Assembly (NCBI RefSeq): GCF_021922925.1
Contig: NZ_CP040786.1
Coordinates: 1,984,001 to 2,048,000, forward strand
Reading direction: 5' to 3'
Source: Clavibacter phaseoli
GTDB lineage: Bacteria; Actinomycetota; Actinomycetes; Actinomycetales; Microbacteriaceae
DNA length: 64,000 nucleotides
Part shown: positions 40,797 through 58,714 of the stretch, one piece after another
Numbering within the stretch: the stretch's first letter is position 1
How the letters are laid out: each line of letters opens with the position of its first letter
Notes under the pieces: generated by a model
The model's input: only the letters and a program-made list of their open reading frames with translations
Databases searched by the model: none
Told to the model about the DNA's origin: nothing
Position numbers and translations under genes: made by a program

Positions 40797-40822
40797 GGGC
40801 GGCCCGGGAGCCCGGACCGCCC
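40797..40822. terminator. Terminator hairpin after the hydroxyproline operon
   Basis: Arms GGGCGG-C-CCGGG (40797-40808) and CCCGG-A-CCGCCC (40811-40822), one C-A mismatch. It lies 18 bases past the stop of the aldehyde dehydrogenase gene on the minus strand. Confidence 0.65.
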
Positions 40823-40840
40823 GATCGATCGTGCCGGTCG

Positions 40841-42340
40841 TCAGGCGCGGGCGCCGCGCGCGCTCACCCGCTGCGGCACGCCCCACGGGTTCGCGGTGCG
40901 CAGCGGCTCGGGCAGCAGCGCGTCGGGCACGCCCTGGAACGCGACGCCGCGGAGCAGCCGGTCGAGCGACGCCGTGCCGACGCTCGTGCCGCGGTCGAGC
41001 GTGGTGGCGGGCCAGGGTCCGCCGTGCTGCTGCGCGTCGGTGACGGAGACGCCCGTCGGCCAGGCGTCGACGAGCACGCGGCCGGCGCGGGCGGCGAGCA
41101 CGCGGATCAGCTCGGCCGCGGCCTGGTCGGCCTCTCCCTCGCCGAGGTGGACGCTCGCGGTCAGCTCGCCCGGGAAGGTGCGCGCCGCGAGGGCGGCGAG
41201 GTCGGTGCCCGCGGGGTACTCGACGAGGAGCGCGAACGGGCCGAAGACCTCGTGGCGGAGGGCGTCGCCCGCGGCCTCGAAGTCGGCGAGCGCGACGGCG
41301 GCGACGGTGGGGGTCACGGATCCGTCGTCGCCGGCGGGCGCGCGGCCCTCCGCGACGAGGCGCACGCCGTCGACCGCGATGGCGGCGGCGCGGCCGCCCG
41401 CGTAGCCCTCGGCGATCTTGCGGTTCAGCATCCCGTGCGGGGCGACCGTGCCGGCCTCCTCCGCGAGGACCGCGTCGAGGCCGTGGCCCGCGGGGATCAG
41501 CACGATCCCGGGCGCGGTGCAGAGCTGTCCGGCGGATCCGGCCGCGCTGGCCACGAGGGCCGACGCGATGTCCTCCCCGCGCTCGGCGGCGGCGCGCTCG
41601 GTGATCACGACGGGGTTGACGCTGCCGAGCTCGCCGAAGAACGGGATCGGGTCGGGGCGGGCTGCGGCGACGTCGGCGAGGAAGCGGCCGGCGCGGAGCG
41701 AGCCCGTGAAGGTGGCGGCGCGGATCCGCGGATCGCGCAGCATCGCGAGCCCAGCCTCCTCGCCCTCGACGAGCTGCAGCGTGCCCTCGGGGAGGCCCGC
41801 CTCGACGAGCGCGGCGGATGCGGCCGCCGCGACGAGGCGCGACAGCTCGGGGTGGCCGGGGTGGGCCTTCACGACCACCGGGCAGCCGACCGCGAGCGCC
41901 GACGCGGTGTCGCCGCCCGCGACGGAGAAGGCGAACGGGAAGTTCGACGCCGCGAAGTTGAGCACCGGGCCGACGGGCACGAGGTACCGGCGGATGTCGG
42001 GGCGCGGGGCGGGTGCCGCGTCGGCGTCCGCGTGGTCGATGCGCGCGTCGAGGTAGCGGCCGTCGCGTACGGCGGCCGCGAGGATCCGCAGCTGCACGGT
42101 CGTGCGCGTCAGCTCGCCGGCGAGGCGGCCGGGCGCGAGCGCGGTCTCCCGCTCGGCGACGGGCAGCAGCTCGGGGCGGATCGCCTCGAGCGCGTCGGCG
42201 ACGGCGTCGAGCGCGCGGGCGCGGGCCGCCGGCGCCAGCGCGGCGAGCGGCGCGGCGGCCCGGGCGGCGCGCGCGGCGACGGCGTCCACGGTCGCCTGCG
42301 CGGTCGGGTCGGTGGTCGCATCGATCTCGTGCGGGGTCAT
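40841..42340 (-). CDS. Aldehyde dehydrogenase, probable 2-oxoglutarate semialdehyde dehydrogenase
   Basis: A 499-residue NAD(P)-dependent aldehyde dehydrogenase. Visible are LNFAASNFPFAFSVAGGDTA, VVVKAHPGHP, FTGSLRAGR, the general base Glu in FGELGSVNP and the catalytic Cys in GSAGQLCTAPG. The FAASNFPFAFSVAGGDTASA region is typical of the branch containing 2-oxoglutarate semialdehyde dehydrogenases. As last gene of the hydroxyproline operon it would make 2-oxoglutarate, the pathway product that enters the TCA cycle. The ATG has AGGAGA upstream. A 26-base gap separates it from the epimerase gene. Confidence 0.88.
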   Translation of the reverse strand: MTPHEIDATTDPTAQATVDAVAARAARAAAPLAALAPAARARALDAVADALEAIRPELLPVAERETALAPGRLAGELTRTTVQLRILAAAVRDGRYLDARIDHADADAAPAPRPDIRRYLVPVGPVLNFAASNFPFAFSVAGGDTASALAVGCPVVVKAHPGHPELSRLVAAAASAALVEAGLPEGTLQLVEGEEAGLAMLRDPRIRAATFTGSLRAGRFLADVAAARPDPIPFFGELGSVNPVVITERAAAERGEDIASALVASAAGSAGQLCTAPGIVLIPAGHGLDAVLAEEAGTVAPHGMLNRKIAEGYAGGRAAAIAVDGVRLVAEGRAPAGDDGSVTPTVAAVALADFEAAGDALRHEVFGPFALLVEYPAGTDLAALAARTFPGELTASVHLGEGEADQAAAELIRVLAARAGRVLVDAWPTGVSVTDAQQHGGPWPATTLDRGTSVGTASLDRLLRGVAFQGVPDALLPEPLRTANPWGVPQRVSARGARA

Positions 42341-42366
42341 GTCTCTCCTCGGTGGGGGCTCATCCG

Positions 42367-43368
42367 TCAGAACCGGAAGCCGCTCGGGAACGGGTCGGTG
42401 GGATCCAGCAGGTACTGTCCCATGCCGGTGATCCACGCGCGCCCCGTGATGGCGGGGACGATCGCGGGACGGCCGGCGACGGTCGTCTCGCGGAGAATCC
42501 GGCCGGTGAAGCGGCTGCCGATGAACGACTCGTTCACGAAGTCGTCGCCGACCGCCAGCTCGCCGCGCGCCCACAGCTCGGCCATGCGCGCGGACGTGCC
42601 GGTGCCGCACGGCGAGCGGTCGAACCAGCCGGGGTGGATCGCCATGGCGTGCCGCGACAGCCGCGCGTCGGATCCGGGCGCCAGGAACTCCACGTGGTGG
42701 CAGTGGTCGACCCCGGAGATCTCCGGGTGCGACGGCGCGTCCTGGTCGTTGATCGCGCCCATGATCGCGAGCCCGGCCTGGAGGATCTCCTGCTGCCGCT
42801 CGCGGTCGAACGGCAGCCCGAGCGCGTCTAGCTCGACGACGGCGTAGAAGTTGCCCCCGAACGCGAGGCTGTACGGGACGGTGCCGTGGCCCGGCACGTC
42901 GATGGAGGCGTCGAGCCGCTCCACGTACGACGGCACGTTCTCGATCGTGACGGACGCGGCGCGTCCGCCATCCACGTCGACGCGCGCGATCACGAGCCCG
43001 GCCGGGGTGTCGAGCCGGATCGTGGTGACCGGCTCCTGCACCTCGACGAGCCCGGTCTCCACGAGCACGGTCGCCACGCCGATGGTGCCGTGGCCGCACA
43101 TCGGCAGGCAGCCGGACACCTCGATGTAGAGGACGCCCCAGTCGCAGTCGTCGCGCGTGGGCGGCTGCAGGATCGCGCCGCTCATCGCCGCGTGCCCGCG
43201 CGGCTCGGTCATGAGCAGGAGCCGCAGGTGGTCGAGGTGCTCGATGAGGTGCAGGCGGCGCTCGTTCATGGTGGAGCCGGGGATCACGCCGAACCCGCTC
43301 GTGACGACGCGGGTCGGCATGCCCTCGGTGTGCGAGTCGACGGCGTGGAAGACGCGGGAGGACCTCAT
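42367..43368 (-). CDS. 4-hydroxyproline 2-epimerase (proline racemase family)
   Basis: A 333-residue member of the proline racemase superfamily. Both catalytic cysteines are present, Cys 91 in PMCGHGTIG and Cys 254 in RSPCGTGTSA, which rules out the dehydratase branch, where the second region differs or the first Cys is Thr. The operon context identifies the substrate: it converts trans-4-hydroxy-L-proline to cis-4-hydroxy-D-proline for the dehydrogenase. It is 7 bases downstream of the deaminase gene. Known homologues are called lhpA or hypE in other bacteria. Proline racemase activity is not excluded by sequence. Confidence 0.9.
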   Translation of the reverse strand: MRSSRVFHAVDSHTEGMPTRVVTSGFGVIPGSTMNERRLHLIEHLDHLRLLLMTEPRGHAAMSGAILQPPTRDDCDWGVLYIEVSGCLPMCGHGTIGVATVLVETGLVEVQEPVTTIRLDTPAGLVIARVDVDGGRAASVTIENVPSYVERLDASIDVPGHGTVPYSLAFGGNFYAVVELDALGLPFDRERQQEILQAGLAIMGAINDQDAPSHPEISGVDHCHHVEFLAPGSDARLSRHAMAIHPGWFDRSPCGTGTSARMAELWARGELAVGDDFVNESFIGSRFTGRILRETTVAGRPAIVPAITGRAWITGMGQYLLDPTDPFPSGFRF

Positions 43369-43375
43369 CCCTCGA

Positions 43376-44293
43376 TCATCGCCCCGCGAGGTGGTCGAGC
43401 GCGCGGCGCGTGTCGCGCGTCACCTGCTCGGCGACGGCGGCGGGCAGCGGCGCGCGCGGCGGTCGCGTGGGGCCGCCCGTGCTCTCGCCGGCCACGTCGA
43501 TCGACAGCTTGATGGCCTGCACGAACTCGGTGCGCGAGTCCCAGCGGAAGACGGGGACGAGGTGCTGGTACAGCGCCTTCGCCTCGTCGATGCGGCCGCT
43601 GGTCGCGAGCCCGTACAGCTCGACGGCCTCGCGCGGGAACGCGTTCGGGTAGCCCGCGAACCAGCCGACGGCGCCCATGATGAGCGACTCGAGCAGCAGG
43701 TCGTCGGCGCCCGCGATGACGTCGAGGCCCGTGAGGTCCTGGATCTCCGTCACGCGCCGGATGTCGCCCGAGAACTCCTTGATCGCCACGACGTTCTCGA
43801 GCGCGTCGAGGCGCTGCAGGAGCTGCGGCGTGAGGTCGACCTTGGTGTCGAACGGGTTGTTGTAGGCCATGATCGGCAGGCCCACCTCGTCGACGCGCGC
43901 GTAGTGCTCGACGACCTCGTCGTCGCTCGCCCGGTAGATGGTGGGCGGGAGGAGCAGCACGCCGTCGGCGCCGTCCTCGGCCGCGATCTCGGCCCACTTC
44001 TTGGCCTGGTGCCAGCCGACGCCGTGCACGCCGGCCACGACGATCCCGCGGTCGCCGACGGTCTCGACCGCGACCTGCACGACCTTCCGGCGCTCCTCGT
44101 CGGTGAGCGAGGAGTACTCGCCGAGGGATCCGTTCGGGCCGACGCCGCGGCAGCCGTTGGACATGAGCCAGTCGCAGTGGGCGGCGTACGCGTCGTAGTC
44201 GACGGCGAGGCCGGCGGGGGCCGACGCGTCCTCGCGGAACGGCAGCGTGGTGGCGACGACGACGCCTCCGAGGTCCAGGGCGGGTGCGGTCAT
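43376..44293 (-). CDS. DapA-family lyase, probable 1-pyrroline-4-hydroxy-2-carboxylate deaminase
   Basis: A 305-residue class I aldolase-like protein of the dihydrodipicolinate synthase family. The Schiff-base Lys is about 172 in VVAIKEFSGD and the Tyr about 144 in MAYNNP; GPNGSLGEYSSL is the substrate loop. In hydroxyproline pathways this family removes ammonia and water from the cyclic imine to give 2-oxoglutarate semialdehyde. A true DapA is less likely because the gene sits between the dehydrogenase and epimerase genes. The ATG overlaps the upstream stop (44290-44293). Confidence 0.88.
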   Translation of the reverse strand: MTAPALDLGGVVVATTLPFREDASAPAGLAVDYDAYAAHCDWLMSNGCRGVGPNGSLGEYSSLTDEERRKVVQVAVETVGDRGIVVAGVHGVGWHQAKKWAEIAAEDGADGVLLLPPTIYRASDDEVVEHYARVDEVGLPIMAYNNPFDTKVDLTPQLLQRLDALENVVAIKEFSGDIRRVTEIQDLTGLDVIAGADDLLLESLIMGAVGWFAGYPNAFPREAVELYGLATSGRIDEAKALYQHLVPVFRWDSRTEFVQAIKLSIDVAGESTGGPTRPPRAPLPAAVAEQVTRDTRRALDHLAGR

Positions 44294-45897
44294 GGCATGT
44301 CCTTCCGGTCGGTGGTGCGAGGCGGTGCGGGGGTGGTCGGGGGCGCGTGCTCGCGGGGCGGATCCTCCCCGGTCGGCGGGTCGTCGGCGCCGGGCGCGGC
44401 GAGGGACGGGGGTCCGGCGTCGCGGCGGTCGTACGCGGCGGCGAGCTCGCCGAGGCGCACGGGCGAGGCGATGGGGCGGCGGTCGGATCCGGGGCCCGGC
44501 GCGGCGGGCGCGTGGGCGGATCCCCCGCACGCCGGCGCCTCCGCGGCGAGCAGCTGCTCGACGGTCCGCCCGCAGACGCGGCCCTGGCAGATGCCGAGGC
44601 CGGCGCGCGTCGCGAGCTTCATGGAGCGGAGGTCGGTGGACGACGCGGCGCGGGCGGTCGCGCGGAGACGCCCGACGGGCACCTCCTCGCAGCGGCAGGC
44701 GAGCGTGTCGTCGCGCAGCCAGCCGGTCCAGCCGGGGCGGATCCCGTGCGCGGCCTCGATGCGGCCGGCCACGTCGTGGGCCACGGCCCGGCGGCGGACG
44801 GCGGGCGCGACGGCGGCGTCGGACGGGGATCCGCCCGCGGCGCAGTGCCCGGCGACCTCGCCCTCCGCGAGGGCCTGGTCCACTCCCCCGATGCCGGTGA
44901 TCTCGCCGGCCGCGTACACGCCCACGGGACCCGCGCCCTGGTCGGCGTCGACCTCGACGAAGCGGTCGGAGCCGATGCGGCAGCCCGCCGCGATGGGCAG
45001 CTCGAGCCGGGGCGTGAACCCGTGGCCGACGCACACGGCGTCCACCGCGATCCGCCGCTCGGTGCCCGGGATCGGCGCCCACGACGCGTCGAGGCGCTGC
45101 ACGGTGACGGCCTCGACCCGGTCGGTCCCGTGCGCCGCGACGACCGCGCTGCCCGTGGCGTACCCGATGCGCTCGCGCGCCAGCACGGAGACGTACCCGG
45201 CGAGCTCGGCGGCCTTGTGCGGCGCGCGGGCGAGGCCCGCCGGACGTCGGAGCCAGCCGCGGGCGAGCCCCGGCACACGCGCGGCCTCGTGGATCCCGAC
45301 CACGCGCGCCCCCGCCTGCACGAGCGACACCGCGACGGGCAGGAGGAAGGGGCCGGCACCCGCGACGATCATGCGGTCGCCTATGCGCACGCGCTCGCCC
45401 TTCGCGAGGGCCTGCGCGGCGCCCGCGGTGAAGACGCCCGGGAGGTCCCAGCCGGGGAAGGGCAGCGTGCGGTCGTGCGCGCCGGTCGCGAGCACGAGCC
45501 CGTCGGGACGGAGCGCGAGGGGCTCGCGGCGCGATCCGTCGACCTGGCCGACGAGCACGTGGACGACGGCGGCGGGCGTGGCGGGCGCGTCAGCATCGGC
45601 GTCCGGCGTCGGCCGCTCGATCGCCCACACCTGCGCGCCCGTGACGATCGCGCAGCCGTCGTCGGCGGCGAGCCGGGAGCGGAGCGCGGTGAACGCGTCC
45701 CAGCCGTGGTGCAGGATCCGCTCGCGCGCCGCCGGACGCGACTCCGGCAGGTGCCGCCAGTACTGGCCGCCCAGCTCGTCGGACGCGTCGAGCAGCGTGA
45801 CCCGGGACCCGCGTCCGCGGGCGGCGGCCGCGGCGGCGAGCCCGGCCGGTCCCGCGCCGACGACGACGACGTGACGCCGGTCGTCCGCGCCGCTCAC
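44290..45897 (-). CDS. D-hydroxyproline dehydrogenase subunit, FAD/NAD-binding with [2Fe-2S] BFD-like domain
   Basis: A 535-residue flavoprotein. The N-terminal dinucleotide-binding motif is VVVVGAGPAGLAAAA; later come LVLATGAHDRTLPF, MIVAGAGPFLLPVAV and VYAAGEITGIGG. The C-terminal third holds a BFD-like iron-sulphur site: LACRCEEV, then LGICQGRVCG. This is the layout of the alpha subunit of bacterial D-hydroxyproline, D-nopaline/octopine and HcnB-type dehydrogenases. It starts with GTG at 45895-45897, coupled by a GTGA overlap to the small iron-sulphur subunit, and ends overlapping the deaminase start. The last 70 residues are Pro/Ala-rich and atypical. Confidence 0.88.
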   Translation of the reverse strand: MSGADDRRHVVVVGAGPAGLAAAAAARGRGSRVTLLDASDELGGQYWRHLPESRPAARERILHHGWDAFTALRSRLAADDGCAIVTGAQVWAIERPTPDADADAPATPAAVVHVLVGQVDGSRREPLALRPDGLVLATGAHDRTLPFPGWDLPGVFTAGAAQALAKGERVRIGDRMIVAGAGPFLLPVAVSLVQAGARVVGIHEAARVPGLARGWLRRPAGLARAPHKAAELAGYVSVLARERIGYATGSAVVAAHGTDRVEAVTVQRLDASWAPIPGTERRIAVDAVCVGHGFTPRLELPIAAGCRIGSDRFVEVDADQGAGPVGVYAAGEITGIGGVDQALAEGEVAGHCAAGGSPSDAAVAPAVRRRAVAHDVAGRIEAAHGIRPGWTGWLRDDTLACRCEEVPVGRLRATARAASSTDLRSMKLATRAGLGICQGRVCGRTVEQLLAAEAPACGGSAHAPAAPGPGSDRRPIASPVRLGELAAAYDRRDAGPPSLAAPGADDPPTGEDPPREHAPPTTPAPPRTTDRKDMP

Positions 45898-46286
45898 GAC
45901 GGCTCCCCCGCGCGCTCGGCCGGTCCGGTGGATCCGGCGGGTCCCGCGGATCCGGCGTCCTGCGCGGTCGCGTCCGGCACGGTCGCGCCGGGCCCGGTCT
46001 CGACCACGTCGCCCTCGACCGCGCGGCGCTGGCAGGCGCGCACGTCCGGCAGCCCGTTGACGGTGACGGTGCAGTCGAAGCACACGCCGATCCCGCAGAA
46101 GACGCCGCGCGGACGGCCCGCGCTCGCGGTCGTGCGCCAGGCGAGCGTGCCCGAGGCGAGCAGCGCGCCGGCGATGGTCTGGCCGCGCACGCCCTCGACG
46201 GGATCCCCGTCCACGGTGAAGCGCACCGCCTCGGCGGGTCCCGGGCGGACCGGGTCGCGCGCCGGATCCACGCGCCGCGGCGTCAT
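45894..46286 (-). CDS. D-hydroxyproline dehydrogenase, small [2Fe-2S] subunit
   Basis: A 130-residue ferredoxin-like protein. The cluster motif is GVFCGIGVCFDCTVTVNG (C-x4-C-x2-C) followed by RACQRR for the fourth Cys. This is the gamma/HcnA-type subunit that carries electrons between the two flavoprotein subunits. The C-terminal 40 residues form an Ala/Gly/Pro/Glu tail. Its ATG overlaps the stop of the larger oxidoreductase subunit (46283-46286) and its stop overlaps the start of the next subunit, so all three are translated together. Confidence 0.9.
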   Translation of the reverse strand: MTPRRVDPARDPVRPGPAEAVRFTVDGDPVEGVRGQTIAGALLASGTLAWRTTASAGRPRGVFCGIGVCFDCTVTVNGLPDVRACQRRAVEGDVVETGPGATVPDATAQDAGSAGPAGSTGPAERAGEPS

Positions 46287-47515
46287 GCGCGCACCCCGGC
46301 GGCGTGGGTCGGCGACGCGGCGCCCCCGGACGCGGCGCCCCCGGGCATCGCGAGCCCGAGCGACGCGCGCGCCACGGAGAAGGGCCGCACGTCGAGCGGC
46401 GTCGCGGCGCCCGTCATCTGCGCGGTGATGAGGTCCGCCGTCGCGACCGACAGCCCGATGCCCGCGCCCTCGTGCCCGCTCGCGTGCCAGAGGCCGGGCA
46501 GCCGCGGATCCGGGCCGACGACCGGGAGGTGGTCGGGCAGGTAGGGCCGGAAGCCGCCGTAGGAGCGCATCGCGTTCGCCTCGGCGAGGAAGGGGAAGAG
46601 CCGCACGGCCTTCGCGGCGAGCTCCTCGAGCACGGCGACGCGCAGCGACGCGTCGAAGCCCACGCGCTCGCGGCTGGATCCGATGAGCACCGTCCCGGAC
46701 GGCGTCGACTCCACGACGCCCGAGGTCTGCAGCGCGCCGTCGCCGGATCCGACCGCGCCCACGTAGTCGCCGTCGTAGACCTTGTGGAGGACGCGGTGCG
46801 GCATGCGCGTGGTCACGAGCACGACCCCGCGCCGCGGCAGCACGGGCAGCTCGACGCCGAGGGCGCGCGCCACCTCGCCCGACCAGGGGCCGGCGGCGAC
46901 GAGCACGTCGTCCGCCGGGATGTCGCCCGCGCTCGTCCGCACGCCGCGGAGCGCGCCGTCGGCGTCGAGCAGCGGCCCCGTCACCTCGACGCCCGTGCGC
47001 ACGACCGCGCCCGCGCGCCGGGCCGACGCCGCGAGCGCCTCGGTGGCGATGGCGGGCTGCACCTGCGCGTCCTCGGGGTAGTGCACGGCCGCGGTGATCG
47101 CCGGGTTCAGCCACGGCTCGAGCTCGAGGGCCCGGCGCGCGTCCACGGGGATCGCGTCGACCCCCGCGGAGCGCTGGGTGGCGGCGAACGCGAGGAGCGG
47201 ATCCGCGCCCTCGTCGGTGGTCGTGACGACGAGCCCGCCCTTGGGCTCGTACTCGATGGAGGGCAGCGCGTCGCCCAGCTCGTCGGCGAGCTCGTCGGCG
47301 ACCTCGGGCCAGCGGCGGGCGGCGAGCTGCGCGAGCTCGAGCTCCGCGCCGGGGCCCTTGTCGGAGACGAGGATGTTGCCCTCGCCCTGCGCGCTCGTGC
47401 CGGAGGCGACGGCGGCCCGCTCGACGACCGTGACGCGGATCCCCGCCCGAGCGAGCGACCGGGCGCACGCGGCACCCACGATGCCCCCGCCGACGACGAC
47501 CACGTGACGCGTCAT
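46283..47515 (-). CDS. D-hydroxyproline dehydrogenase, catalytic FAD subunit (DAO family)
   Basis: A 410-residue D-amino-acid-oxidase-fold protein. It opens with VVVVGGGIVGAACARSLARA and shows EGNILVSDKGPGAELELAQL, a hallmark of HcnC/hydroxyproline dehydrogenase beta subunits, and near the C-terminus HASGHEGAGIGLSVATADLI. It oxidises cis-4-hydroxy-D-proline to the cyclic imine. First gene of the six-gene operon; a palindrome with the GTAATATGTCAC word lies 57-73 bases upstream of its start. The last 20 residues are Ala/Gly-rich. Confidence 0.9.
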   Translation of the reverse strand: MTRHVVVVGGGIVGAACARSLARAGIRVTVVERAAVASGTSAQGEGNILVSDKGPGAELELAQLAARRWPEVADELADELGDALPSIEYEPKGGLVVTTTDEGADPLLAFAATQRSAGVDAIPVDARRALELEPWLNPAITAAVHYPEDAQVQPAIATEALAASARRAGAVVRTGVEVTGPLLDADGALRGVRTSAGDIPADDVLVAAGPWSGEVARALGVELPVLPRRGVVLVTTRMPHRVLHKVYDGDYVGAVGSGDGALQTSGVVESTPSGTVLIGSSRERVGFDASLRVAVLEELAAKAVRLFPFLAEANAMRSYGGFRPYLPDHLPVVGPDPRLPGLWHASGHEGAGIGLSVATADLITAQMTGAATPLDVRPFSVARASLGLAMPGGAASGGAASPTHAAGVRA

Positions 47516-47571
47516 GGTGTCCCTGCTCTCACGGGTGGATGCGCCTCGGGAGGCGGTGCGGCGGTCGGCGA

Positions 47572-47588
47572 TGACAGTAATATGTCAC
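47572..47588. promoter_or_regulatory. Operator-like inverted repeat upstream of the hydroxyproline operon
   Basis: Inverted repeat TGACA (47572-47576) / TGTCA (47583-47587) around GTAATA. The plus strand reads GTAATATGTCAC at 47577-47588, the reverse complement of GTGACATATTAC found upstream of the GH127 gene. A GntR-family gene ends 41 bases away and is the obvious candidate to bind it. Confidence 0.65.
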
Positions 47589-47628
47589 ACATCGTCGACG
47601 AGGGGAAGCCCCTCCGTCGCCGGACGGA

Positions 47629-48342
47629 TCAGGCGACGGTGTCCGCGGGCTCGGGATCCGCGACGCCCGCGGCCTCGTCCTCGCCGCGCCCCGCCCACCA
47701 GCCGGTGGCGTGTCGGATGTGCCGCACCATCAGCTGGTGCGACCCGGGGCCGTCGCCGGCGACGAGCGCCCGCAGCAGCTCGTGGTGCTCGGCCGCCGAC
47801 GCGTCGAGCATGGCGCTCGCCTTCATCGACGCGAGGCCGACGAGGCGCGTGCGCGAGCGGAGGTCCGCGATGGCCTCGGTGAGCACGGGGTTGCCGAGCA
47901 TCCGCGTGAGGGAGAGGTGGAACTCCTGGTCGGCCTCGAGGTACGCGCGGAGGTCGCCCTCGCGCGCGCCCTCCTCGATGCGGTCGGCGAGCGCCTCCAG
48001 CCCCGGCAGCGCGCCGTCCGGCAGCTGGCCGGCGAGCCGCTCCATGGCGGGCGCCTCGAGGAGCTGGCGCACCTGCACCAGGTGGCCGAGCTCCTCGTCG
48101 CTCACGGCGGTGACCCGGAAGCCCTTGTTGCGGACCGTCTCGACGAAGCCGCGCTTCTCGAGCTCGAGCACCGCCTCGCGGACGGGCGTCGCCGAGACGT
48201 CGAAGCGCACGGCGAGCGTGGGCACGGTGATGAGCGTGCCCGGCTCCAGCTCGCCCGAGACGATGGCCGCGGACAGGGCCTGGTGCACGTGCTCGCGCAG
48301 GCTCGCGCGCGGCGGTGCGGGACGCAGTGCGGAGAGGCTCAT
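47629..48342 (-). CDS. GntR family regulator (FadR/FCD subfamily)
   Basis: A 237-residue regulator. The winged helix (about 15-80) has ITVPTLAVRFDVSATPVREA and LEKRGFVETVRNKGFRV; the FCD ligand domain follows with YLEADQEFHLSLTRMLGNP and AAEHHELLRALVAGD, including the His and Asp residues that bind a metal and small acid. The ligand is likely hydroxyproline or a pathway intermediate (inference). It starts 19 bases after the stop of the Xaa-Pro aminopeptidase gene, with a perfect AGGAGGA, so it is the last gene of the importer/peptidase unit and sits just above the hydroxyproline operon. Confidence 0.9.
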   Translation of the reverse strand: MSLSALRPAPPRASLREHVHQALSAAIVSGELEPGTLITVPTLAVRFDVSATPVREAVLELEKRGFVETVRNKGFRVTAVSDEELGHLVQVRQLLEAPAMERLAGQLPDGALPGLEALADRIEEGAREGDLRAYLEADQEFHLSLTRMLGNPVLTEAIADLRSRTRLVGLASMKASAMLDASAAEHHELLRALVAGDGPGSHQLMVRHIRHATGWWAGRGEDEAAGVADPEPADTVA

Positions 48343-48361
48343 GCGGATCCTCCTCCTCGGC

Positions 48362-52873: not shown

Positions 52874-53862
52874 GCGGTGATCCTCACTCGGGGGTCGAGC
52901 ACGGTGTACAGCACGTCGACGACCACGTTCCCGACGACCACGAAGGCCGCGGCGAGGAGCGTGACGCCCATGATGACGGGCTGGTCGTTCTTGGCGATGG
53001 AGTCGGCGGCGAGCTTGCCGACGCCGTTGAGGCCGAAGATGCTCTCGGCGATCAGGGCGCCGCCGAGCAGGCCGGCGAAGTCCATGCCGAACAGGGTGAC
53101 GACGGGCGTGAGCGACGGCCGGAGCGCGTGGCGCCGGATCACGAGCGCCGCGGACAGGCCCTTGGCCCGCGCGGTGCGCAGGTAGTCCTCCTCGAGCGTG
53201 TCGAGGACGTTGGCCCGCACGATGCGCGCGTACACCGAGGCGTACCCGAGCGCGACCACGATCCACGGCATGAGGTACGAGTCGAACCACATGACCGGGT
53301 CGTCGGCGAACGCCACGGACTGCGGGAACGGCAGGATCTGCAGCTGCACGACGAGCACGTACTGCAGGAGCAGCGCGGCGAAGGTCGTCGGCACGCTGAT
53401 CCCGGTGAGCGCCGCCGTCATCGCGGCCCGGTCCCATCCGGTGCCCTGCTTGATCGCGCTGACGAGGCCGCCGGCCACGCCGAAGACGACCCAGAGGACC
53501 GCCGCGCCGACCGCGACCGTGATGCTCACGGGCAGGCGGGACAGCATCAGGTCGAGCACGGGCTGCTGCGTCTGGAAGCTGAAGCCGAGGCACGGCGCGG
53601 CGCACTGGATCGCCGTGGGGCCGTCGCCGTAGGTGCGGCCCGTGAAGATCCCCGCGATGAAGTCGCCGTACTGCGCCCAGAACGGCCGGTCGAGGCCGAG
53701 GAGCTGGCGGATGGAGTCGATCTTGTCCGGCGTGCAGGTCTTGCCGCAGATGGTGACGGCGGGATCCGGCTGGAGCAGGAAGAAGATCATGTAGGTGAAC
53801 AGGCTGATGAGCGCGAGCACGATCAGCGCCGCCCCGGCCCGGCGGAGGAGGTAGCCGATCAT
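52870..53862 (-). CDS. Oligopeptide ABC transporter permease 1 (DppB type)
   Basis: A 330-residue permease with six helices and an external loop after the first helix. The EAA-type cytoplasmic loop is LEEDYLRTARAKGLSAALV, followed by RHALRPSLTPVVTLFG. The N-terminal RRAGAALIVLALISLFTYM is standard for DppB. The loop at about 35-90 contains four cysteines (ICGKTC, QCAAPC), unusual for the family and possibly two external disulphides. Its ATG overlaps the stop of the second permease gene (53859-53862). Confidence 0.92.
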   Translation of the reverse strand: MIGYLLRRAGAALIVLALISLFTYMIFFLLQPDPAVTICGKTCTPDKIDSIRQLLGLDRPFWAQYGDFIAGIFTGRTYGDGPTAIQCAAPCLGFSFQTQQPVLDLMLSRLPVSITVAVGAAVLWVVFGVAGGLVSAIKQGTGWDRAAMTAALTGISVPTTFAALLLQYVLVVQLQILPFPQSVAFADDPVMWFDSYLMPWIVVALGYASVYARIVRANVLDTLEEDYLRTARAKGLSAALVIRRHALRPSLTPVVTLFGMDFAGLLGGALIAESIFGLNGVGKLAADSIAKNDQPVIMGVTLLAAAFVVVGNVVVDVLYTVLDPRVRITA

Positions 53863-54821
53863 GCCGCCTCCCCCTGCTCGAGCGCGGTGCGGAGGTGGTC
53901 GCCGAACACCGTGAACGACAGCACCGTGAGGAAGAGGAACGAGCCCGGCACGATGAAGTACGCGGGGTCGACCGTGTACCAGGCGACCGAGTCGGCGATC
54001 ATCTGACCCCACGAGGGCGTCGGCGGCAGCACGCCCACCCCGAGGAACGACAGGCTCGCCTCGGTGCCGATGTACCCCGGCACCGAGAGCGTGGCCAGCA
54101 CGATGATGGTGCCGCGCAGGTTCGGCAGCACCTCCCGGAAGATCACGCGCATCGACGAGGCGCCGGATGCGCGCGCGGCCTCCACGAAGTCGCGCGTGCG
54201 GATCGTCATGGTCTGGCCGCGCACGATGCGCGCCGTGTACGGCCAGCCGAAGACGCTGAGCACCAGGACGAGCAGCGCCGGGCGGTTGCCCGCGGGCAGC
54301 GCCGAGAGGATCGCGATCATGAAGATCAGCGCCGGGAAGGCCATGAGGAAGTCCATGACGCGCGACACGATCTGGTCGACGATCCCGCCGAAGTAGCCGG
54401 CGACCATGCCCGCGACCATGCCGACGGCCGTGGTGACGACCGTCGCGGAGACCGCGATGAGCAGGGACACCCGGGCGCCGTACGCGATGCGGGCGAAGAT
54501 GTCGCGCCCGTTCTGCGGCTCGACGCCGAACCAGTGCGAGGCGCTGACGCCGCCGAACGGGCCGATGGGCAGGCCGCCGAGGACGGGGTCCACGGCCGTC
54601 GCGTCGAACGTCGTCGGACCCCAGCCGGTGATCCCGCTCAGGAGCGGCGCGAACACCGCCAGGACCAGGACCAGCACCACGAACGCGGTGCTGGCGATCA
54701 CGGACGGCTTCGACCGGAGGGCCGCGACCACGCGCTTGGCCGGCGTCACGGCGGGCGGCCGTCCCGTCGGGTAGGCGGAGGTCGCGTCGGGCGCCGACGC
54801 GCCCTGGAGGGTGGCGGTCAC
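53859..54821 (-). CDS. Oligopeptide ABC transporter permease 2 (DppC type)
   Basis: A 320-residue permease with a cytoplasmic N-tail and six helices. HWFGVEPQNGRDIFARIAYG, typical of DppC, is followed by the EAA-type loop TRDFVEAARASGASSMRVI and FREVLPNLRGTI. The start is a GTG at 54819-54821, three bases after the stop of the substrate-binding protein gene. It pairs with the DppB-type permease. Confidence 0.92.
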   Translation of the reverse strand: MTATLQGASAPDATSAYPTGRPPAVTPAKRVVAALRSKPSVIASTAFVVLVLVLAVFAPLLSGITGWGPTTFDATAVDPVLGGLPIGPFGGVSASHWFGVEPQNGRDIFARIAYGARVSLLIAVSATVVTTAVGMVAGMVAGYFGGIVDQIVSRVMDFLMAFPALIFMIAILSALPAGNRPALLVLVLSVFGWPYTARIVRGQTMTIRTRDFVEAARASGASSMRVIFREVLPNLRGTIIVLATLSVPGYIGTEASLSFLGVGVLPPTPSWGQMIADSVAWYTVDPAYFIVPGSFLFLTVLSFTVFGDHLRTALEQGEAA

Positions 54822-54824
54822 CGC

Positions 54825-56507
54825 CTACTTCCCCGTGTGGAGGCCGACGGTGGCGAAGTCCACGCCGCCCGCGAAGTACGGGTCCGCGTAGGCGTTGCGC
54901 ACGTTGGCGCCCAGCACGAGGAGCGCGCTGCCGAAGTAGAGCGGGACGGTCGGCGCGAGCTCCTGGATCTGCTCGTCGAGGTCGCCCCACGCCGCGTTCG
55001 CCGCGTCGAGGTCGGTCATGGACGAGATCTCGTCGATCTTCGCGTTCACGGCCGGATCGTTGAGCTGCGCGACGTTGTTGTTGCCCTTGGCGCTGATCTG
55101 CCGGCCGTCGAAGAGCGTCGGGAGGACCGTGCTGGCCGAGCGCCAGTCCGGGCACCAGCCCGTGACGGCGGCGTCGTGCTGCTGCGAGGTCGTGCCGATG
55201 GTCTCGTAGTAGGTCGCCGTGTCGATGATGTTGAACTCCACCGTGATGCCGACCTTCGCGAGCGACTGCTGGAGCGACTCGCCGATCTTCTGCTGGGTGG
55301 GGAGGTTGCGCTGGTCGAGCGTGATGGTGAAGCCGTCCTCCACGCCCGCCTCCTTGAGGAGCGCCTTCGCCTTCTCGACGTCGCCCGCGCTGTCCGTGCT
55401 GGGGTACAGGTCGAAGTCCTTGTGGCCGGGCACGGTGGGCGTGAGCATCGTCGAGGCGGGGACGGCGAGAGACGGCCCGCCGATGACGTCGATGACCGAC
55501 TTCTTGTCCACGGCGTAGGCGATGGCCTGGCGGACGCGGGGGTCGTCGAGGTGGGGCTTGGTCGTGTTCAGCGCGAGGTAGGTCGTGCAGCCGCCGTCGC
55601 CGGTCACGGTCCGCGATTTGATCTCCGGGGTCTGGATGCGGGAGACGGAGGCCGCCGTGATCCCGCCGGCGATGGCGTTCTTGTCGTCGCCCTGGCCCGC
55701 GATCATGCGCTCGTCGATGGTCGCCTGGTCGAGGCCGACGTCGAACTGCCAGACGTCGGGCTTCGCCGTGCGCACGTCGTCGGTGGCCTGGTCCCACTCG
55801 GTGTTGCGCTCGAGGGTGAGGGAGGAGCCGGGCGTGCGCGCCGTCACCTTGTAGGGCCCGGACGCGATCGGCTGCTGGTCGATGCTCGTCGCCGTGACCT
55901 TCGCGGGATCGGCGGGGAACGGCGTGAAGGTGCTCTGCGCGGCGACGCTCGCGAACTCCGGCACGGAGCGGTTGAGGTGGAAGACGATGGTCTTCTCGTC
56001 GGGGGTCTCGATGGAGGGCAGGTCGCCGGAGATGTAGGGGCCCTGGTAGGAGTCGCCGCCCGCGAGGTACATGCGGGAGTACGGGGAGCCGATGGCCAGC
56101 GACGGCTCGAAGGCGCGCTCGACGCCGAACTTCACGGACTCGCTCGTGATCGGCGAGCCGTCCTCGAACTTGAGGCCGTCCTTGAGCGTGAAGGTCCAGA
56201 CGGTGGCGTCCGCGTTCGGGGTCCCCGTGTCGGTGGCGAGGTCGGGGGCGATCGTGGCGCCGTCCTTCCCGGAGACCGTCGTCAGCGTGCGGTAGATGAG
56301 CCGGTAGAGGTTCTGGACGCCGGTGTCGTAGCCCATCTCCGGATCCAGGTGCGAGAAGTCGGCGCTGGCGAGCACCTGGATCGTGCCGCCCGTGTCGGCG
56401 GGGCCGGTGACGCCGCCTGCCGCGGCGCCGCCTCCGGCGCCGGCGCAGGACGTGAGGGCGAGGCTGGCGGCGACGGCCAGCCCTACTGCGGTGATTCGTC
56501 GGTTCAT
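54825..56507 (-). CDS. Oligopeptide ABC transporter substrate-binding lipoprotein (SBP family 5)
   Basis: A 560-residue lipoprotein. The lipobox LALTSC puts the lipidated Cys at residue 21. Family 5 features include SHLDPEMGYDTGVQNLYRLI, FTLKDGLKFEDGSPITSESV and DDPRVRQAIAYAVDKKSVID. It binds peptides outside the membrane and hands them to the permease pair. Context suggests peptides rich in proline/hydroxyproline, possibly still arabinosylated, because the nearby arabinofuranosidase has no signal peptide. The start is at 56505-56507; a 12-residue upstream extension is not needed for the signal. Confidence 0.92.
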   Translation of the reverse strand: MNRRITAVGLAVAASLALTSCAGAGGGAAAGGVTGPADTGGTIQVLASADFSHLDPEMGYDTGVQNLYRLIYRTLTTVSGKDGATIAPDLATDTGTPNADATVWTFTLKDGLKFEDGSPITSESVKFGVERAFEPSLAIGSPYSRMYLAGGDSYQGPYISGDLPSIETPDEKTIVFHLNRSVPEFASVAAQSTFTPFPADPAKVTATSIDQQPIASGPYKVTARTPGSSLTLERNTEWDQATDDVRTAKPDVWQFDVGLDQATIDERMIAGQGDDKNAIAGGITAASVSRIQTPEIKSRTVTGDGGCTTYLALNTTKPHLDDPRVRQAIAYAVDKKSVIDVIGGPSLAVPASTMLTPTVPGHKDFDLYPSTDSAGDVEKAKALLKEAGVEDGFTITLDQRNLPTQQKIGESLQQSLAKVGITVEFNIIDTATYYETIGTTSQQHDAAVTGWCPDWRSASTVLPTLFDGRQISAKGNNNVAQLNDPAVNAKIDEISSMTDLDAANAAWGDLDEQIQELAPTVPLYFGSALLVLGANVRNAYADPYFAGGVDFATVGLHTGK

Positions 56508-56612
56508 CGGACTCTCGTTTCGTGGATGGCGGCCGTGGCGCACCGGGTGGGGAGTGACGGACGGGGTCGTGCGATGGGAGGGGATGGGGGGGAGCGGAGG
56601 TGCGTGCGACCG

Positions 56613-56635
56613 CCCCGGATCGGGTCGATCCGGGG
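56613..56635. terminator. Hairpin between GH127 and the transporter genes
   Basis: Arms CCCCGGATC (56613-56621) and GATCCGGGG (56627-56635), 5-base loop, 23 bases past the GH127 stop on the minus strand. It may stop part of the transcript or stabilise ends. The space 56508-56612 probably holds a promoter for the transporter unit, but no clear box was found. Confidence 0.6.
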
Positions 56636-56658
56636 AGCCGCGCGCGCGGGCCGAGGCG

Positions 56659-58665
56659 TCAGCCGGTGTCGGCGGCGCGGATCCAGACCCGCATGGCGGC
56701 GGGCGACCGGTTGCCCCAGAGGGCGTACGGCACGAGCACGGCGTCGACGGGATCGGCCGACGCGGCGGGGGCGACGGCGCCGGGGACGACCTCGGGGTAG
56801 AGCTCGTCGGGTGCGGGGACCGCGCGGCGGAGGCGCACGGCGAGCGCGACGCCCGACGCGGGATCGGCGGCGTCCGACGCCGGACCCCACGGCGCGGCGA
56901 GCGGGAGCGGGACGGTCCGCGCCGACGCGAGGTCGCGCGGGTCGAGGAGCAGGTCGTCGACGGGGGCGCCGGCGTCCTCCTGCTCGACGGCGAACACGAT
57001 CGGGCCGCGCGCCACCGCGAGGCTGCCGCGCGTGGCGTCGAGGTGCGGGTGGGATCCGAGGGCCCGCACGGGCATGTCCAGCTCGACCACGAGCGCGTCG
57101 CCGGCGACCCAGGCGCGCGTGGCGCGGATCCACCGGTCGTCGGCCTCCGCGTCGACCTCGGCGGTGGACCCGTCGGCGCCCGACACCACGGCGCTCGCCG
57201 ACCGGCACCAGCCGGGCCGGCGCAGCACGATGCCCGTCTCCGCGCCGGATGCGCGCAGCACCTCGACGCGCACGGCGCCGTCCCACGGGTACGCGGTCGT
57301 CACGCGGACGTCGATCGCGTCGGTGCGGATCACGCACGCGGCCGGGTGCGCGATGACGAGGTCGTCGCCGTCCCGCACCGCGACGTGGTCCTGCAGCTCG
57401 CTCATCCAGCGGACGATGTTCGGCGGGCAGCACGGGCAGGTGAACCACGGGCGCCGCATCAGCTCGCCCTCGGTCTCGGCGCCGGACTGCGCGTGGTGGT
57501 CGGGGCGGCGCTGGAGCGGGTTGTCGTAGAAGAAGCCCGTGCCGTCGGCGGAGAGTCCCACCGCGTAGGCGTTCAGCAGCACGGTCTCGTGGGTGTCGAG
57601 GAACCGGGGCTCGCCCGTCGCGAGGAACAGGCGCCACGCCCACTGCATGACGGCGATGGCCGCGCAGGTCTCGCTGTAGGAGCGCTCGCTCGGCAGCTCG
57701 TAGGCGTCGCCGATCGCCTCGTCCGAGTGGCGGCTGCCGAGCCCGCCGGTGACGTAGAGGCGGGTGCGCACGGCGTCGTCGAAGAGGCGGATCGAGGCCG
57801 CGAGCAGCTCGGCGTCGCCCGTCTCCGTCGCCACGTCCGTCGCGCCAGCGGCGAGGTAGGCCATGCGGACGGCGTGCCCCGTGACGGCCGGCATCTCGCG
57901 GAAGGGGTGCGCGTCCTGGAAGTACTCGGCGGGGAAGACCCGCGTCGCCACCGTGCCGTGCCCGCGACGGTCGACGAACGCGGAGGCGAGGTCGAGGTAG
58001 GAGCGCTCCCCCGTCTCGCGATGCAGCTCGACGAGCGCCATCTCGACCTCGGGGTGGCCGCAGACCTCGGCGCGCCCACCCGGGCCGAACTCCCGCACCG
58101 CGGCGTCGGCGAAGCGGCGGGCCACGGCGAGGAGCCGGCCGTCGCCGCCCTGTCGGGAGTCGGCGACGGCGGCCTGGATCAGGTGCCCTAGGTTGTAGAG
58201 CTCGTGGCCCCAGGCGAGGTCGGACCAGGGCGCGCGCTCGGATCCGGGCCGCTGCACGTAGGAGCCGATGTAGCCGTCCTCCGCCTGCACGCGCTCGAGC
58301 ACGTCGGTCGCCTCCTCGAGGAAGGCGCGCATCTCCGGGCTGGCGTCGCCTCGGCCGACCTCGTAGGCCACGCCCTCGAGGGTCTTGTAGACGTCGGTGT
58401 CGAGGAACGGGTAGCGCGGGACGAGCCGCTCGCCCGGTCCGTCGACGGCCGCGCGGAGGTCGTCGAGGTTGCCGGCCCGGGCCATGGACGCGATCGCGTG
58501 GGGGATCGTGCGGACGCGGTTGCGCTCCTGCCATGCCCCGAGCAGGCCGCCCTCCAGGGTGACGGCGTCGGTGCCCAGCGGTCGTCGGGATCCGGTGCTG
58601 GGGAGGACGGCAGCGCGGCTCGCGGCCGCGCGGATAGCATCCGCATCTGCTCCTGTGACTGCCAT
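56659..58665 (-). CDS. GH127 beta-L-arabinofuranosidase (HypBA1-like)
   Basis: A 668-residue GH127 enzyme. Family features are GYIGSYVQ, HELYNLGHLIQAA, VTGGLGSRHSDEAIGDAYEL, YSETCAAIA (Glu and Cys metal ligands) and CPCCPPNIVRW (about 411-421), which gives the catalytic and metal-binding cysteines. Characterised GH127 enzymes (HypBA1 of Bifidobacterium) cut beta-L-arabinofuranosyl units, including those on hydroxyproline in plant extensins and solanaceous lectins. There is no signal peptide, so it acts in the cytoplasm, which requires import of the sugar-peptide. The start at 58663-58665 has GAGGGAG before it. A 12-base word shared with the hydroxyproline operon sits 37 bases upstream. Confidence 0.92.
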   Translation of the reverse strand: MAVTGADADAIRAAASRAAVLPSTGSRRPLGTDAVTLEGGLLGAWQERNRVRTIPHAIASMARAGNLDDLRAAVDGPGERLVPRYPFLDTDVYKTLEGVAYEVGRGDASPEMRAFLEEATDVLERVQAEDGYIGSYVQRPGSERAPWSDLAWGHELYNLGHLIQAAVADSRQGGDGRLLAVARRFADAAVREFGPGGRAEVCGHPEVEMALVELHRETGERSYLDLASAFVDRRGHGTVATRVFPAEYFQDAHPFREMPAVTGHAVRMAYLAAGATDVATETGDAELLAASIRLFDDAVRTRLYVTGGLGSRHSDEAIGDAYELPSERSYSETCAAIAVMQWAWRLFLATGEPRFLDTHETVLLNAYAVGLSADGTGFFYDNPLQRRPDHHAQSGAETEGELMRRPWFTCPCCPPNIVRWMSELQDHVAVRDGDDLVIAHPAACVIRTDAIDVRVTTAYPWDGAVRVEVLRASGAETGIVLRRPGWCRSASAVVSGADGSTAEVDAEADDRWIRATRAWVAGDALVVELDMPVRALGSHPHLDATRGSLAVARGPIVFAVEQEDAGAPVDDLLLDPRDLASARTVPLPLAAPWGPASDAADPASGVALAVRLRRAVPAPDELYPEVVPGAVAPAASADPVDAVLVPYALWGNRSPAAMRVWIRAADTG

Positions 58666-58702
58666 GGCGCTCCCTCGTCCGGCCTCGGGCAGCCGGTGGT
58701 AG

Positions 58703-58714
58703 GTGACATATTAC
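58703..58714 (+). promoter_or_regulatory. GTGACATATTAC word upstream of GH127
   Basis: Exact 12-base match (in inverted orientation) to the palindrome at 47577-47588 upstream of the hydroxyproline operon. It lies 37 bases before the GH127 start, in an AT-rich island of an otherwise GC-rich region. Likely the binding site of the GntR regulator at 47629-48342; inference. Confidence 0.6.

What the first reader, a model, noticed from the sequence alone, without database searches (positions are those of the whole stretch)
40841..58665. A complete predicted system for using plant hydroxyproline-rich glycoproteins
One strand carries, in order of use, a GH127 beta-L-arabinofuranosidase, a five-component oligopeptide importer, a proline iminopeptidase-like enzyme, Xaa-Pro aminopeptidase, a GntR regulator and the full trans-4-hydroxyproline to 2-oxoglutarate route (2-epimerase, three-part D-Hyp dehydrogenase, Pyr4H2C deaminase, semialdehyde dehydrogenase). 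Each family is known alone; GH127 enzymes are known to act on Hyp-linked arabinofuranosides of extensins. The combined gene set in a plant-associated actinobacterium suggests extensin/HRGP peptides are imported and fully used. What is seen: gene order and motifs. What is inferred: substrate identity and joint function.
Basis: partly seen in the sequence, partly recalled or inferred. Interest (0 to 1): 0.85.

Follow-up and report, generated by a model that had tools for sequence, protein, structure and literature searches.

The report
Hydroxyproline glycopeptide import and breakdown operon
A plant-associated bacterium carries fifteen neighbouring genes, arranged as two probable operons that share a rare DNA control site, which may let it take up sugar-coated fragments of plant cell-wall proteins, strip off the arabinose and burn the hydroxyproline.

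Summary
Fifteen minus-strand genes (40841-58665) encode GH127, an Opp-type importer, an S33-like hydrolase, aminopeptidase P, a GntR/FCD regulator and the trans-4-hydroxyproline pathway, in a Clavibacter-like genome. In 249 Microbacteriaceae genomes, 20 of 20 GH127 matches of this clade lie within 20 kb of the S33 or epimerase gene; of 112 other GH127 matches, 3 do. New evidence: the 12-mer GTAATATGTCAC occurs exactly twice in the 3.23-Mb genome, before GH127 and before D-Hyp dehydrogenase. It occurs 27 times in 19 related genomes; the 24 copies I read lie at this block or at hydroxyproline-type genes, and the other 3 map beside them by coordinates. It resembles the footprinted site of Streptomyces HypR, repressor of L-hydroxyproline use. 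In G079, where the operons lie 1.16 Mb apart, both carry it. So in Microbacteriaceae GH127 and the peptide importer probably belong to a hydroxyproline regulon. Best reading: Hyp-arabinosylated (HRGP-type) peptides are imported, deglycosylated in the cytoplasm, trimmed and catabolised. Not shown: sugar linkage, imported ligand, extracellular release. 'Complete' and 'in order of use' are overstated. A new variant: HypR regulon plus GH127 and peptide import.

The parts
56659..58665 (-). GH127 (beta-L-arabinofuranosidase family), 668 aa, predicted cytoplasmic
   Evidence: Pfam PF07944/PF20736/PF20737; 12 HypBA1 positions conserved; no hydrophobic N-terminal stretch by crude measure; frame checked
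58703..58714 (-). HypR-type operator GTAATATGTCAC before GH127, 37 bp upstream of the ATG
   Evidence: exact match; one of only two exact copies in the genome
54825..56507 (-). SBP_bac_5 lipoprotein, solute-binding protein of the importer, 560 aa
   Evidence: Pfam PF00496 264 bits; hydrophobic N-terminus followed by LTSC (lipobox recognised from memory)
53859..54821 (-). OppC-type permease
   Evidence: PF00528
52870..53862 (-). OppB-type permease
   Evidence: PF00528 and PF19300
52007..52873 (-). OppD-type ATPase
   Evidence: PF00005 and PF08352
51111..52010 (-). OppF-type ATPase
   Evidence: PF00005 and PF08352
49807..51114 (-). S33-like alpha/beta hydrolase, proposed Pro/Hyp iminopeptidase
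   Evidence: Abhydrolase_1; best PDB match 8jgn, AT3g61540, 334 bits
48362..49810 (-). M24 aminopeptidase P (Xaa-Pro aminopeptidase)
   Evidence: AMP_N and Peptidase_M24
47629..48342 (-). GntR/FCD regulator, HypR-like
   Evidence: PF00392 and PF07729; alignment with GntR genes of Streptomyces Hyp operons
47577..47588 (+). HypR-type operator before the D-Hyp dehydrogenase operon (reads GTGACATATTAC in gene sense)
   Evidence: exact match
46283..47515 (-). D-Hyp dehydrogenase, FAD (DAO) subunit, SCO6289-like
   Evidence: PF01266 223 bits
45894..46286 (-). D-Hyp dehydrogenase, 2Fe-2S subunit, SCO6290-like
   Evidence: PF13510
44290..45897 (-). D-Hyp dehydrogenase, Pyr_redox_2 + Fer2_BFD subunit, SCO6291-like
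   Evidence: PF07992 and PF04324
43376..44293 (-). Pyr4H2C deaminase (DHDPS family)
   Evidence: PF00701 147.7 bits; activity by context
42367..43368 (-). 4-hydroxyproline 2-epimerase (proline racemase family, Cys/Cys)
   Evidence: PF05544 428.9 bits; MCGHG and SPCGTG motifs
40841..42340 (-). Aldehyde dehydrogenase, proposed alpha-ketoglutarate semialdehyde dehydrogenase
   Evidence: PF00171; specificity by context only

Best explanation
The block is a two-operon, HypR-controlled system for feeding on hydroxyproline-containing peptides that carry beta-L-arabinofuranosyl groups, most likely fragments of plant hydroxyproline-rich glycoproteins. Proposed steps: (1) peptides released outside by unlinked proteases are bound by the lipoprotein SBP and imported by OppBCDF; (2) GH127 removes arabinose in the cytoplasm, and the arabinose can enter an L-arabinose isomerase route encoded about 84 kb from the block; (3) the S33-like hydrolase and aminopeptidase P release Hyp and Pro; (4) epimerase, three-part D-Hyp dehydrogenase, Pyr4H2C deaminase and semialdehyde dehydrogenase turn Hyp into 2-oxoglutarate; (5) the GntR/FCD regulator represses both operons through one GTAATATGTCAC site each, and growth with hydroxyproline lifts the repression. 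Shown here: genes, order, conservation, clade-specific linkage, shared operator. Inferred from the Streptomyces homologues: repression and the pathway's function. Inferred without direct test: steps 1-3 and the ligand.
For: Family assignments. Same 15-gene order in Clavibacter, Okibacterium and Agromyces. Of 249 family genomes, the 20 GH127 matches at 51% identity or more: 20 within 20 kb of S33 or epimerase, 19 near S33, 18 near epimerase, 17 near both; of 112 lower matches, 3. All 20 of these genomes hold the epimerase, against 55 of 249 overall (Fisher 3e-15). Exact 12-mer twice in the genome, no one-mismatch copy. 27 exact sites in 15 of 19 related genomes, reversed-pattern control 0; 24 of the 27 read, each at the block or at hydroxyproline-type genes. 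Site with up to 2 mismatches within 250 bp of 16 of 18 block GH127 genes (12 at up to 1) and of 0 of 21 unlinked GH127; of 52 DAO rows 40 (38 at up to 1; two rows are repeats, so 39 of 50 genes). In trans in G079: exact sites at the GH127 block L101 and at the Hyp operon L148, 1.16 Mb apart. The site shares 9 of 11 bases, core ATGTCAC, with the HypR footprint TACAATGTCAC; HypR represses SCO6289-6293, and loss of SCO6293 abolishes growth on L-Hyp (PMC6608401, abstract and passages). Other GH127 lineages also sit near Hyp or S33 genes: L096, L097, L099 and six Rhizobiales loci. araA present.
Against: No substrate was tested. The 12 positions checked are identical in HypBA1, BT1003 (aceric acid hydrolase) and 4qjy, and the best PDB score is BT1003, not HypBA1. 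In the passages read, HypBA1 is shown on beta-Ara2, a GH146 enzyme on Hyp-linked Araf, and beta-L-Araf also occurs outside HRGPs. In Kribbella, Nonomuraea and Streptomyces MP131-18 the GH127 promoter lacks the site (0 of 7 at up to 2 mismatches), so co-regulation is shown only in Microbacteriaceae. Two block GH127 promoters miss it in the 250-bp count (L100 with 3 mismatches; L098 with 5, although an exact site lies about 30 bp before its aligned start). Four of 19 genomes have no exact copy. In G079 each operon has its own HypR-like gene, so one shared regulator is not proven. The own genome has nine 2-mismatch copies elsewhere, against 1 for the reversed control, that I did not examine. In S. 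coelicolor L-Hyp did not change HypR binding in vitro. 35 of 55 epimerase-bearing genomes lack this GH127 clade. No release enzyme is in the block.
Confidence: 0.7

Rival explanations
1. A general Hyp-peptide system (for example for collagen or gelatin peptides) in which GH127 serves some other substrate and is only a passenger.
For: Streptomyces Hyp operons with S33 and a HypR-like gene lack GH127 in most loci read (L048 is the exception), and the S. coelicolor HypR regulon holds a secreted collagenase (PMC6608401, abstract and passages). 35 of 55 epimerase genomes lack this GH127 clade.
Against: GH127 leads the importer operon and carries the operator in its own promoter. Collagen Hyp carries no arabinofuranoside (recalled). 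20 of 20 genomes with this GH127 clade also hold the epimerase.
Confidence: 0.13
2. GH127 here acts on a different plant sugar linkage (aceric acid or another rhamnogalacturonan-II, AGP or arabinan side chain) and the importer carries oligosaccharides, co-induced with Hyp as a generic plant cell-wall signal.
For: Best PDB match is BT1003, 296 bits, against 256 for HypBA1; the only NCBIfam hit is aceric acid hydrolase; beta-L-Araf occurs in several plant glycans (PMC10850190, start of abstract); Opp-type binding proteins can bind sugars (recalled).
Against: NCBIfam score 312 of a cut-off of 950. Peptidase-family genes lie in the same operon. Best SBP match is 2wok, an oligopeptide-binding protein. 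The genome's exact operator copies lie only at these two operons.
Confidence: 0.14
3. As in Bifidobacterium, the organism mainly harvests arabinose; Hyp catabolism is neighbouring but separate.
For: araA exists in the genome; the B. longum system strips and imports beta-Ara2 (PMC7263609, passages).
Against: No GH121, GH43 or sugar-type importer among the 15 genes; regulator and operator are of the hydroxyproline type.
Confidence: 0.03

Closest known systems
HypR regulon of Streptomyces coelicolor (SCO6289-6294, PMC6608401, abstract and passages seen)
   Same: GntR/FCD regulator; same set of three dehydrogenase parts, deaminase and epimerase; very similar operator
   Different: The described regulon has a secreted M9 collagenase; GH127, an Opp importer, an S33 hydrolase and aminopeptidase P are not in the regulon table seen
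B. longum HypAA-HypBA2-HypBA1 system (PMC7263609, PMC5928203, passages seen)
   Same: Cytoplasmic GH127 and an ABC importer for Hyp-linked arabinose chains
   Different: There the sugar (beta-Ara2) is imported; LacI-family regulator; GH121 and GH43 present; no Hyp catabolism in the described cluster
lhp/hyp operons of Pseudomonas and Sinorhizobium (as mentioned in PMC6608401 and PMC4113996, passages seen)
   Same: Epimerase, D-Hyp dehydrogenase or oxidase, deaminase, aldehyde dehydrogenase
   Different: Take up free Hyp (recalled); no GH127 or peptide arm mentioned in the passages seen
In-silico HRGP use in Latescibacteria (PMC4454575, passages seen)
   Same: GH127 proposed to act on extensin arabinose
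   Different: No linked operon or regulon in the passages seen; sugars and oligopeptides are listed as separate routes

Membership tests
GH127 | Three GH127 Pfam domains over cut-off | tested here: met
GH127 | Zinc site and catalytic residues (HypBA1 E322, E338, C340, C417, C418) | tested here: met
   C417 nucleophile, C340 and C418, and the carboxylate pair E322/E338 from PMC10728902 passages; E338 as ligand and the other pocket positions recalled
GH127 | beta-L-arabinofuranosidase specificity | not testable with these tools
   positions checked are identical in BT1003, an aceric acid hydrolase
Aceric acid hydrolase (NF049879) | Score over the curated cut-off | tested here: not met
   312.3 of 950 bits
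trans-4-L-Hyp pathway | Epimerase, three-part D-Hyp dehydrogenase, deaminase and aldehyde dehydrogenase families in one operon | tested here: met
4-hydroxyproline epimerase (NF010578) | Score over the curated cut-off | tested here: not met
   348.5 of 376 bits; PF05544 met and both Cys motifs present; 68-80% identical to the epimerases in the Streptomyces loci (the 80% one is a fragment)
alpha-ketoglutarate semialdehyde dehydrogenase (NF042993) | Score over the curated cut-off | tested here: not met
   68.7 of 770 bits; family Aldedh only
Prolyl aminopeptidase (TIGR01249) | Score over the curated cut-off | tested here: not met
   37.3 of 259.75 bits; so only S33-like
HypR regulon | GntR + FCD regulator gene beside the Hyp operon | tested here: met
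HypR regulon | Operator of the HypR type before the D-Hyp dehydrogenase gene | tested here: met
   9 of 11 bases shared with the published footprint
HypR regulon | Repression relieved in the presence of hydroxyproline | not testable with these tools
   needs experiment
B. longum HypBA system | GH121, GH43 and sugar importer with GH127 | tested here: not met
   absent among the 15 genes; the rest of the genome was not searched for GH121 or GH43

The most novel reading that the evidence does not exclude
The importer takes up intact Hyp-arabinosylated peptides rather than bare peptides, so the system could also consume arabinosylated plant peptide hormones and thereby mute plant signalling, not only eat wall protein.
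Probability: 0.12. Interest if true: 0.85.

Novelty: new variant of a known kind. Interest (0 to 1): 0.62.

Why it matters
Hydroxyproline-rich glycoproteins are a large plant wall resource, and the best described bacterial system (B. longum) takes the sugar. Here a shared control site ties a GH127 enzyme, a peptide importer, proline-type peptidases and hydroxyproline catabolism together in Microbacteriaceae, with partial versions in other actinobacteria. This turns 'which bacteria eat extensin, and how?' into a direct test of induction, ligand binding and growth, and gives a genomic marker (the operator plus the GH127 clade) to look for such bacteria.

Tried and rejected
Sigma-70 promoter scan of 40600-59100: none found. 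tRNA and Rfam scans of the window: none. Active-site positions could not separate HypBA1-like from aceric-acid-like GH127. The GH127 tree (62 sequences, three of them partial PDB chains) puts the block clade among actinobacterial GH127, apart from the three solved references, with FastTree local support 0.96 for the block clade and low support at several other nodes; it does not settle specificity. Palindrome counting upstream of GH127 missed the operator; it was found by comparing the two window promoters. The idea that GH127 acts outside the cell was dropped for lack of a hydrophobic N-terminus (a crude measure). Structure prediction, fold search and the search for homologous proteins were not used. 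Paper searches whose listings showed no report of a linked GH127, oligopeptide and hydroxyproline operon: (open-licence PMC papers only; some searches listed 12 of 16, 15 of 16 and 12 of 12,549). Searches looked for single enzymes. Seven papers were opened, as passages found by terms, plus one outline with abstract.

Rows dropped before counts: one second piece of a split GH127 match (G187:C202) and 26 epimerase-table rows at 31-41% identity (a second racemase-like family; this drops genomes G104, G118 and G242, so 55 instead of 58 genomes). All 57 S33 rows were used. L009 and L109 are the same genome; L094 lies inside L123; L029 and L126 overlap on one contig. In one search I had loci for 18 of the 20 block GH127 genes (G224 and G175 not fetched) and 21 of the 112 other matches. 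Of the 27 exact sites I read the DNA round 24; three (G148:C1:941168, G244:C1:3088841, G085:C9:31358) are placed by coordinates only.

Changed on re-check: confidence 0.72 to 0.70 and the other-linkage rival 0.12 to 0.14, because the passages read show HypBA1 on beta-Ara2 and a GH146 enzyme on Hyp-linked Araf. The araA distance, the GH127-SBP gap and the account were corrected.
Full report
What is there. The window lies in a Clavibacter-like genome (G000, 3.23 Mb in two contigs, window at C1:1984001-2048000; closest named relatives of the S33-like protein are two Clavibacter records at 95 and 93%). On the minus strand, 58665 to 40841, fifteen genes follow each other: GH127, SBP_bac_5 lipoprotein, OppC, OppB, OppD, OppF, S33-like alpha/beta hydrolase, M24 aminopeptidase P, GntR/FCD regulator, DAO, Fer2_4, Pyr_redox_2 + Fer2_BFD, DHDPS, proline racemase family and aldehyde dehydrogenase. 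All frames are open, and 8 of 14 junctions overlap by 4 bp. Larger gaps are 367 bp before GH127, 151 bp between GH127 and the likely ATG of the binding protein (with a perfect hairpin at 56613-56635), and 113 bp between the regulator and DAO.

How sure the names are. Family names are secure by Pfam. Finer names are not all secure: NCBIfam cut-offs are not reached for the epimerase (348.5 of 376), the aldehyde dehydrogenase (93.9 of 485.2 at best), the S33-like hydrolase (37.3 of 259.75) or GH127 as aceric acid hydrolase (312.3 of 950). The pathway reading rests on the set: the same three dehydrogenase parts, deaminase and epimerase make up SCO6289-6293 of Streptomyces coelicolor, where deletion of SCO6293 stops growth on L-hydroxyproline (PMC6608401, abstract and passages). 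Streptomyces lividans uses t4Hyp and induces its epimerase and neighbouring genes (PMC4113996, passages).

Conservation. The full order is in Clavibacter L002 and L003, Okibacterium L009 and Agromyces L017. GH127-SBP-Opp-S33 without a D-Hyp dehydrogenase operon in the locus is in four Kribbella loci, in Nonomuraea L011 and L012, and in Streptomyces L048, which has DHDPS, a piece of epimerase and GntR beside it. 19 of the 80 loci hold an epimerase match of 60% identity or more. I asked 17 of these genomes for the epimerase: the four full-block genomes have it at 80-98%; the eight actinobacterial genomes with a partial block at 69-79%; the five Rhizobiales genomes only at 39-41%.

Linkage statistics. 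Three queries over the same 249 Microbacteriaceae genomes, drawn evenly from a larger group, were joined. GH127 matches at 51% identity or more: 20 of 20 within 20 kb of S33 or epimerase, 17 of 20 near both. GH127 matches below that: 3 of 112. Genomes with the block GH127 clade: 20 of 20 have the epimerase, against 55 of 249 overall (Fisher 3e-15). GH127 as such is therefore not a hydroxyproline gene; this clade is associated with one.

The operator. Comparing the two window promoters gave a shared 12-mer, GTAATATGTCAC, before GH127 (58703-58714) and, in reverse, before DAO (47577-47588). In the whole genome it occurs exactly twice, at these two places, with no one-mismatch copy; nine two-mismatch copies exist elsewhere (reversed control 1) and were not examined. 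In 19 related genomes it occurs 27 times, in 15 of the 19, reversed-pattern control 0. I read the DNA round 24 of the 27: they lie before a block GH127, before a D-Hyp dehydrogenase gene in or outside the block, before a sodium:alanine symporter gene in L103 (followed there by proline racemase and ornithine cyclodeaminase family genes) and a similar gene in L102, or before a transporter, DHDPS and ornithine cyclodeaminase set in L159. Three are placed by coordinates only, within 5 kb of such genes.

Controls. Within 250 bp upstream, up to 2 mismatches: 16 of 18 block GH127 genes, 0 of 21 unlinked GH127 genes, 0 of 7 block GH127 genes outside Microbacteriaceae, 0 of 3 other-clade GH127 genes near Hyp or S33 genes, and 40 of 52 DAO rows (39 of 50 without two repeats); the reversed pattern gave 0 in every set.

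The test that does not depend on adjacency is G079: the GH127 block and the Hyp operon lie 1.16 Mb apart, and both carry exact sites (L101 two copies, L148 one). A qualification: each of the two has its own HypR-like gene. G003 is a weaker case: the Hyp operon has an exact site, but its GH127 promoter has only a 3-mismatch match.

Link to a known regulator. HypR of S. coelicolor, a GntR/FCD protein, protects TACAATGTCAC and represses SCO6289-6293, a putative collagenase gene and a 2-oxoglutarate dehydrogenase/decarboxylase gene; reporters respond to L-Hyp, although L-Hyp did not change binding in vitro (PMC6608401, abstract and passages). The window site shares 9 of 11 bases and the whole core ATGTCAC. 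The window regulator aligns along its length with the GntR genes of Streptomyces Hyp operons, including the stretch SATPVREA that I take for part of the recognition helix (helix assignment recalled). I therefore call the window regulator HypR-like; binding was not tested.

Why GH127 points to plant glycoprotein, and how far. Characterised GH127 and GH146 enzymes are mostly beta-L-arabinofuranosidases, and extensin Hyp carries short beta-arabinofuranose chains (PMC7263609, PMC10850190, passages). But in those passages HypBA1 is shown on beta-Ara2, a GH146 paralogue is the enzyme for Hyp-linked Araf, and beta-L-Araf also occurs in AGPs, arabinan and RG-II. Twelve HypBA1 positions are conserved in the window protein, but equally in BT1003, an aceric acid hydrolase. 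PDB scores are 296 (6ex6, BT1003), 287 (4qjy) and 256 (3wkw, HypBA1) (that 6ex6 is BT1003 is recalled). Context decides more. Other GH127 lineages also lie near Hyp or S33 genes: L096 and L097 beside the Hyp operon, with SBP_bac_8 and permease genes of a sugar-type ABC transporter; L099 with two GH127 genes and a GH36 alpha-galactosidase after Opp-S33-M24; and six Rhizobiales loci. GH36 next to GH127 is of interest because extensin serines carry alpha-galactose (recalled).

Mechanism proposed. Import of Hyp peptides by the Opp system; cytoplasmic removal of arabinose by GH127, which lacks a hydrophobic N-terminus by a crude measure; release of Hyp and Pro by the S33-like hydrolase and aminopeptidase P; epimerisation, oxidation, deamination and oxidation to 2-oxoglutarate; control of both operons by the HypR-like repressor. 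Arabinose could enter the L-arabinose isomerase route: a three-domain araA is at C1:1940170, about 84 kb from the block. The best structural match of the binding protein is 2wok, an oligopeptide-binding protein of clavulanic acid biosynthesis.

What is new. The Hyp pathway, HypR, GH127 and Opp systems are each known. The paper searches listed under Tried and rejected showed no report that joins GH127 and peptide import to hydroxyproline catabolism, within an open-licence library and the listings seen. The difference from Bifidobacterium is the direction of the meal: there the sugar is taken up; here the gene set implies that the peptide is taken, possibly with its sugar.

Limits. No enzyme or ligand was tested. 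Co-regulation is shown only in Microbacteriaceae. No release enzyme is in the block, and the rest of the genome was not searched for one. Clavibacter includes crop pathogens, so bench tests are proposed in other genera only.

Noticed in passing
L103:4642-8176 (and L102:4853-12258): In L103, a sodium:alanine symporter, second proline racemase-like and ornithine cyclodeaminase family gene in a row (perhaps trans-3-hydroxyproline use), preceded by an exact GTAATATGTCAC site. In L102 the site precedes a similar symporter-like gene, but the racemase and cyclodeaminase-like genes lie about 4 kb further on. In L103 a divergent SMP-30/gluconolactonase-like gene could share the site.
   Followed up: partly
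L103:9304-11601: LPXTG-anchored protein between that gene set and the GH127 operon, with a sub-threshold zinc-metallopeptidase-like Pfam match; could be a surface peptidase.
   Followed up: no
L099:9482-16527: GH36 alpha-galactosidase (Pfam) and two GH127 genes (one by Pfam, one by tblastn) downstream of Opp-S33-M24 in G188; resembles a fuller extensin glycan kit.
   Followed up: partly
L096 and L097: A different GH127 lineage beside the Hyp operon together with SBP_bac_8 and permease genes of a sugar-type transporter, instead of the Opp importer.
   Followed up: partly
L014, L018, L022, L023, L050, L037: Rhizobiales loci with an S33-like gene close to a distant GH127 (31-33% identity); in L014 and L023 the neighbours look like a sugar ABC transporter set (by reading ORF starts; Pfam not run).
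   Followed up: partly
L159 (G003:C2:274000-286000): Exact operator before a transporter, DHDPS and ornithine cyclodeaminase set; no DHDPS match to the window protein was found in this genome's main Hyp operon (L147).
   Followed up: yes
L017, L101, L115 GH127 promoters: Two tandem operator copies 23 bp apart; a second copy of the core at 33-42 bp in L009, L107 and L108.
   Followed up: partly
window 56613-56635: GC-rich perfect hairpin in the GH127-SBP gap, a possible attenuator or processing site.
   Followed up: no
L048 near 14000: Truncated epimerase copy (90 aa, 81%) next to the GH127-Opp-S33-M24-DHDPS block; a full copy lies elsewhere in that genome.
   Followed up: no
G000:C1:2522470-2524380: Second, unlinked GH127 (42% identical) in the window's genome.
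   Followed up: partly
G079 L101 and L148: Two HypR-like genes, one with the GH127 block and one with the distant Hyp operon.
   Followed up: no
window 59033-63700: RecQ helicase and an ExeM/NucH-type extracellular nuclease upstream of the block.
   Followed up: no
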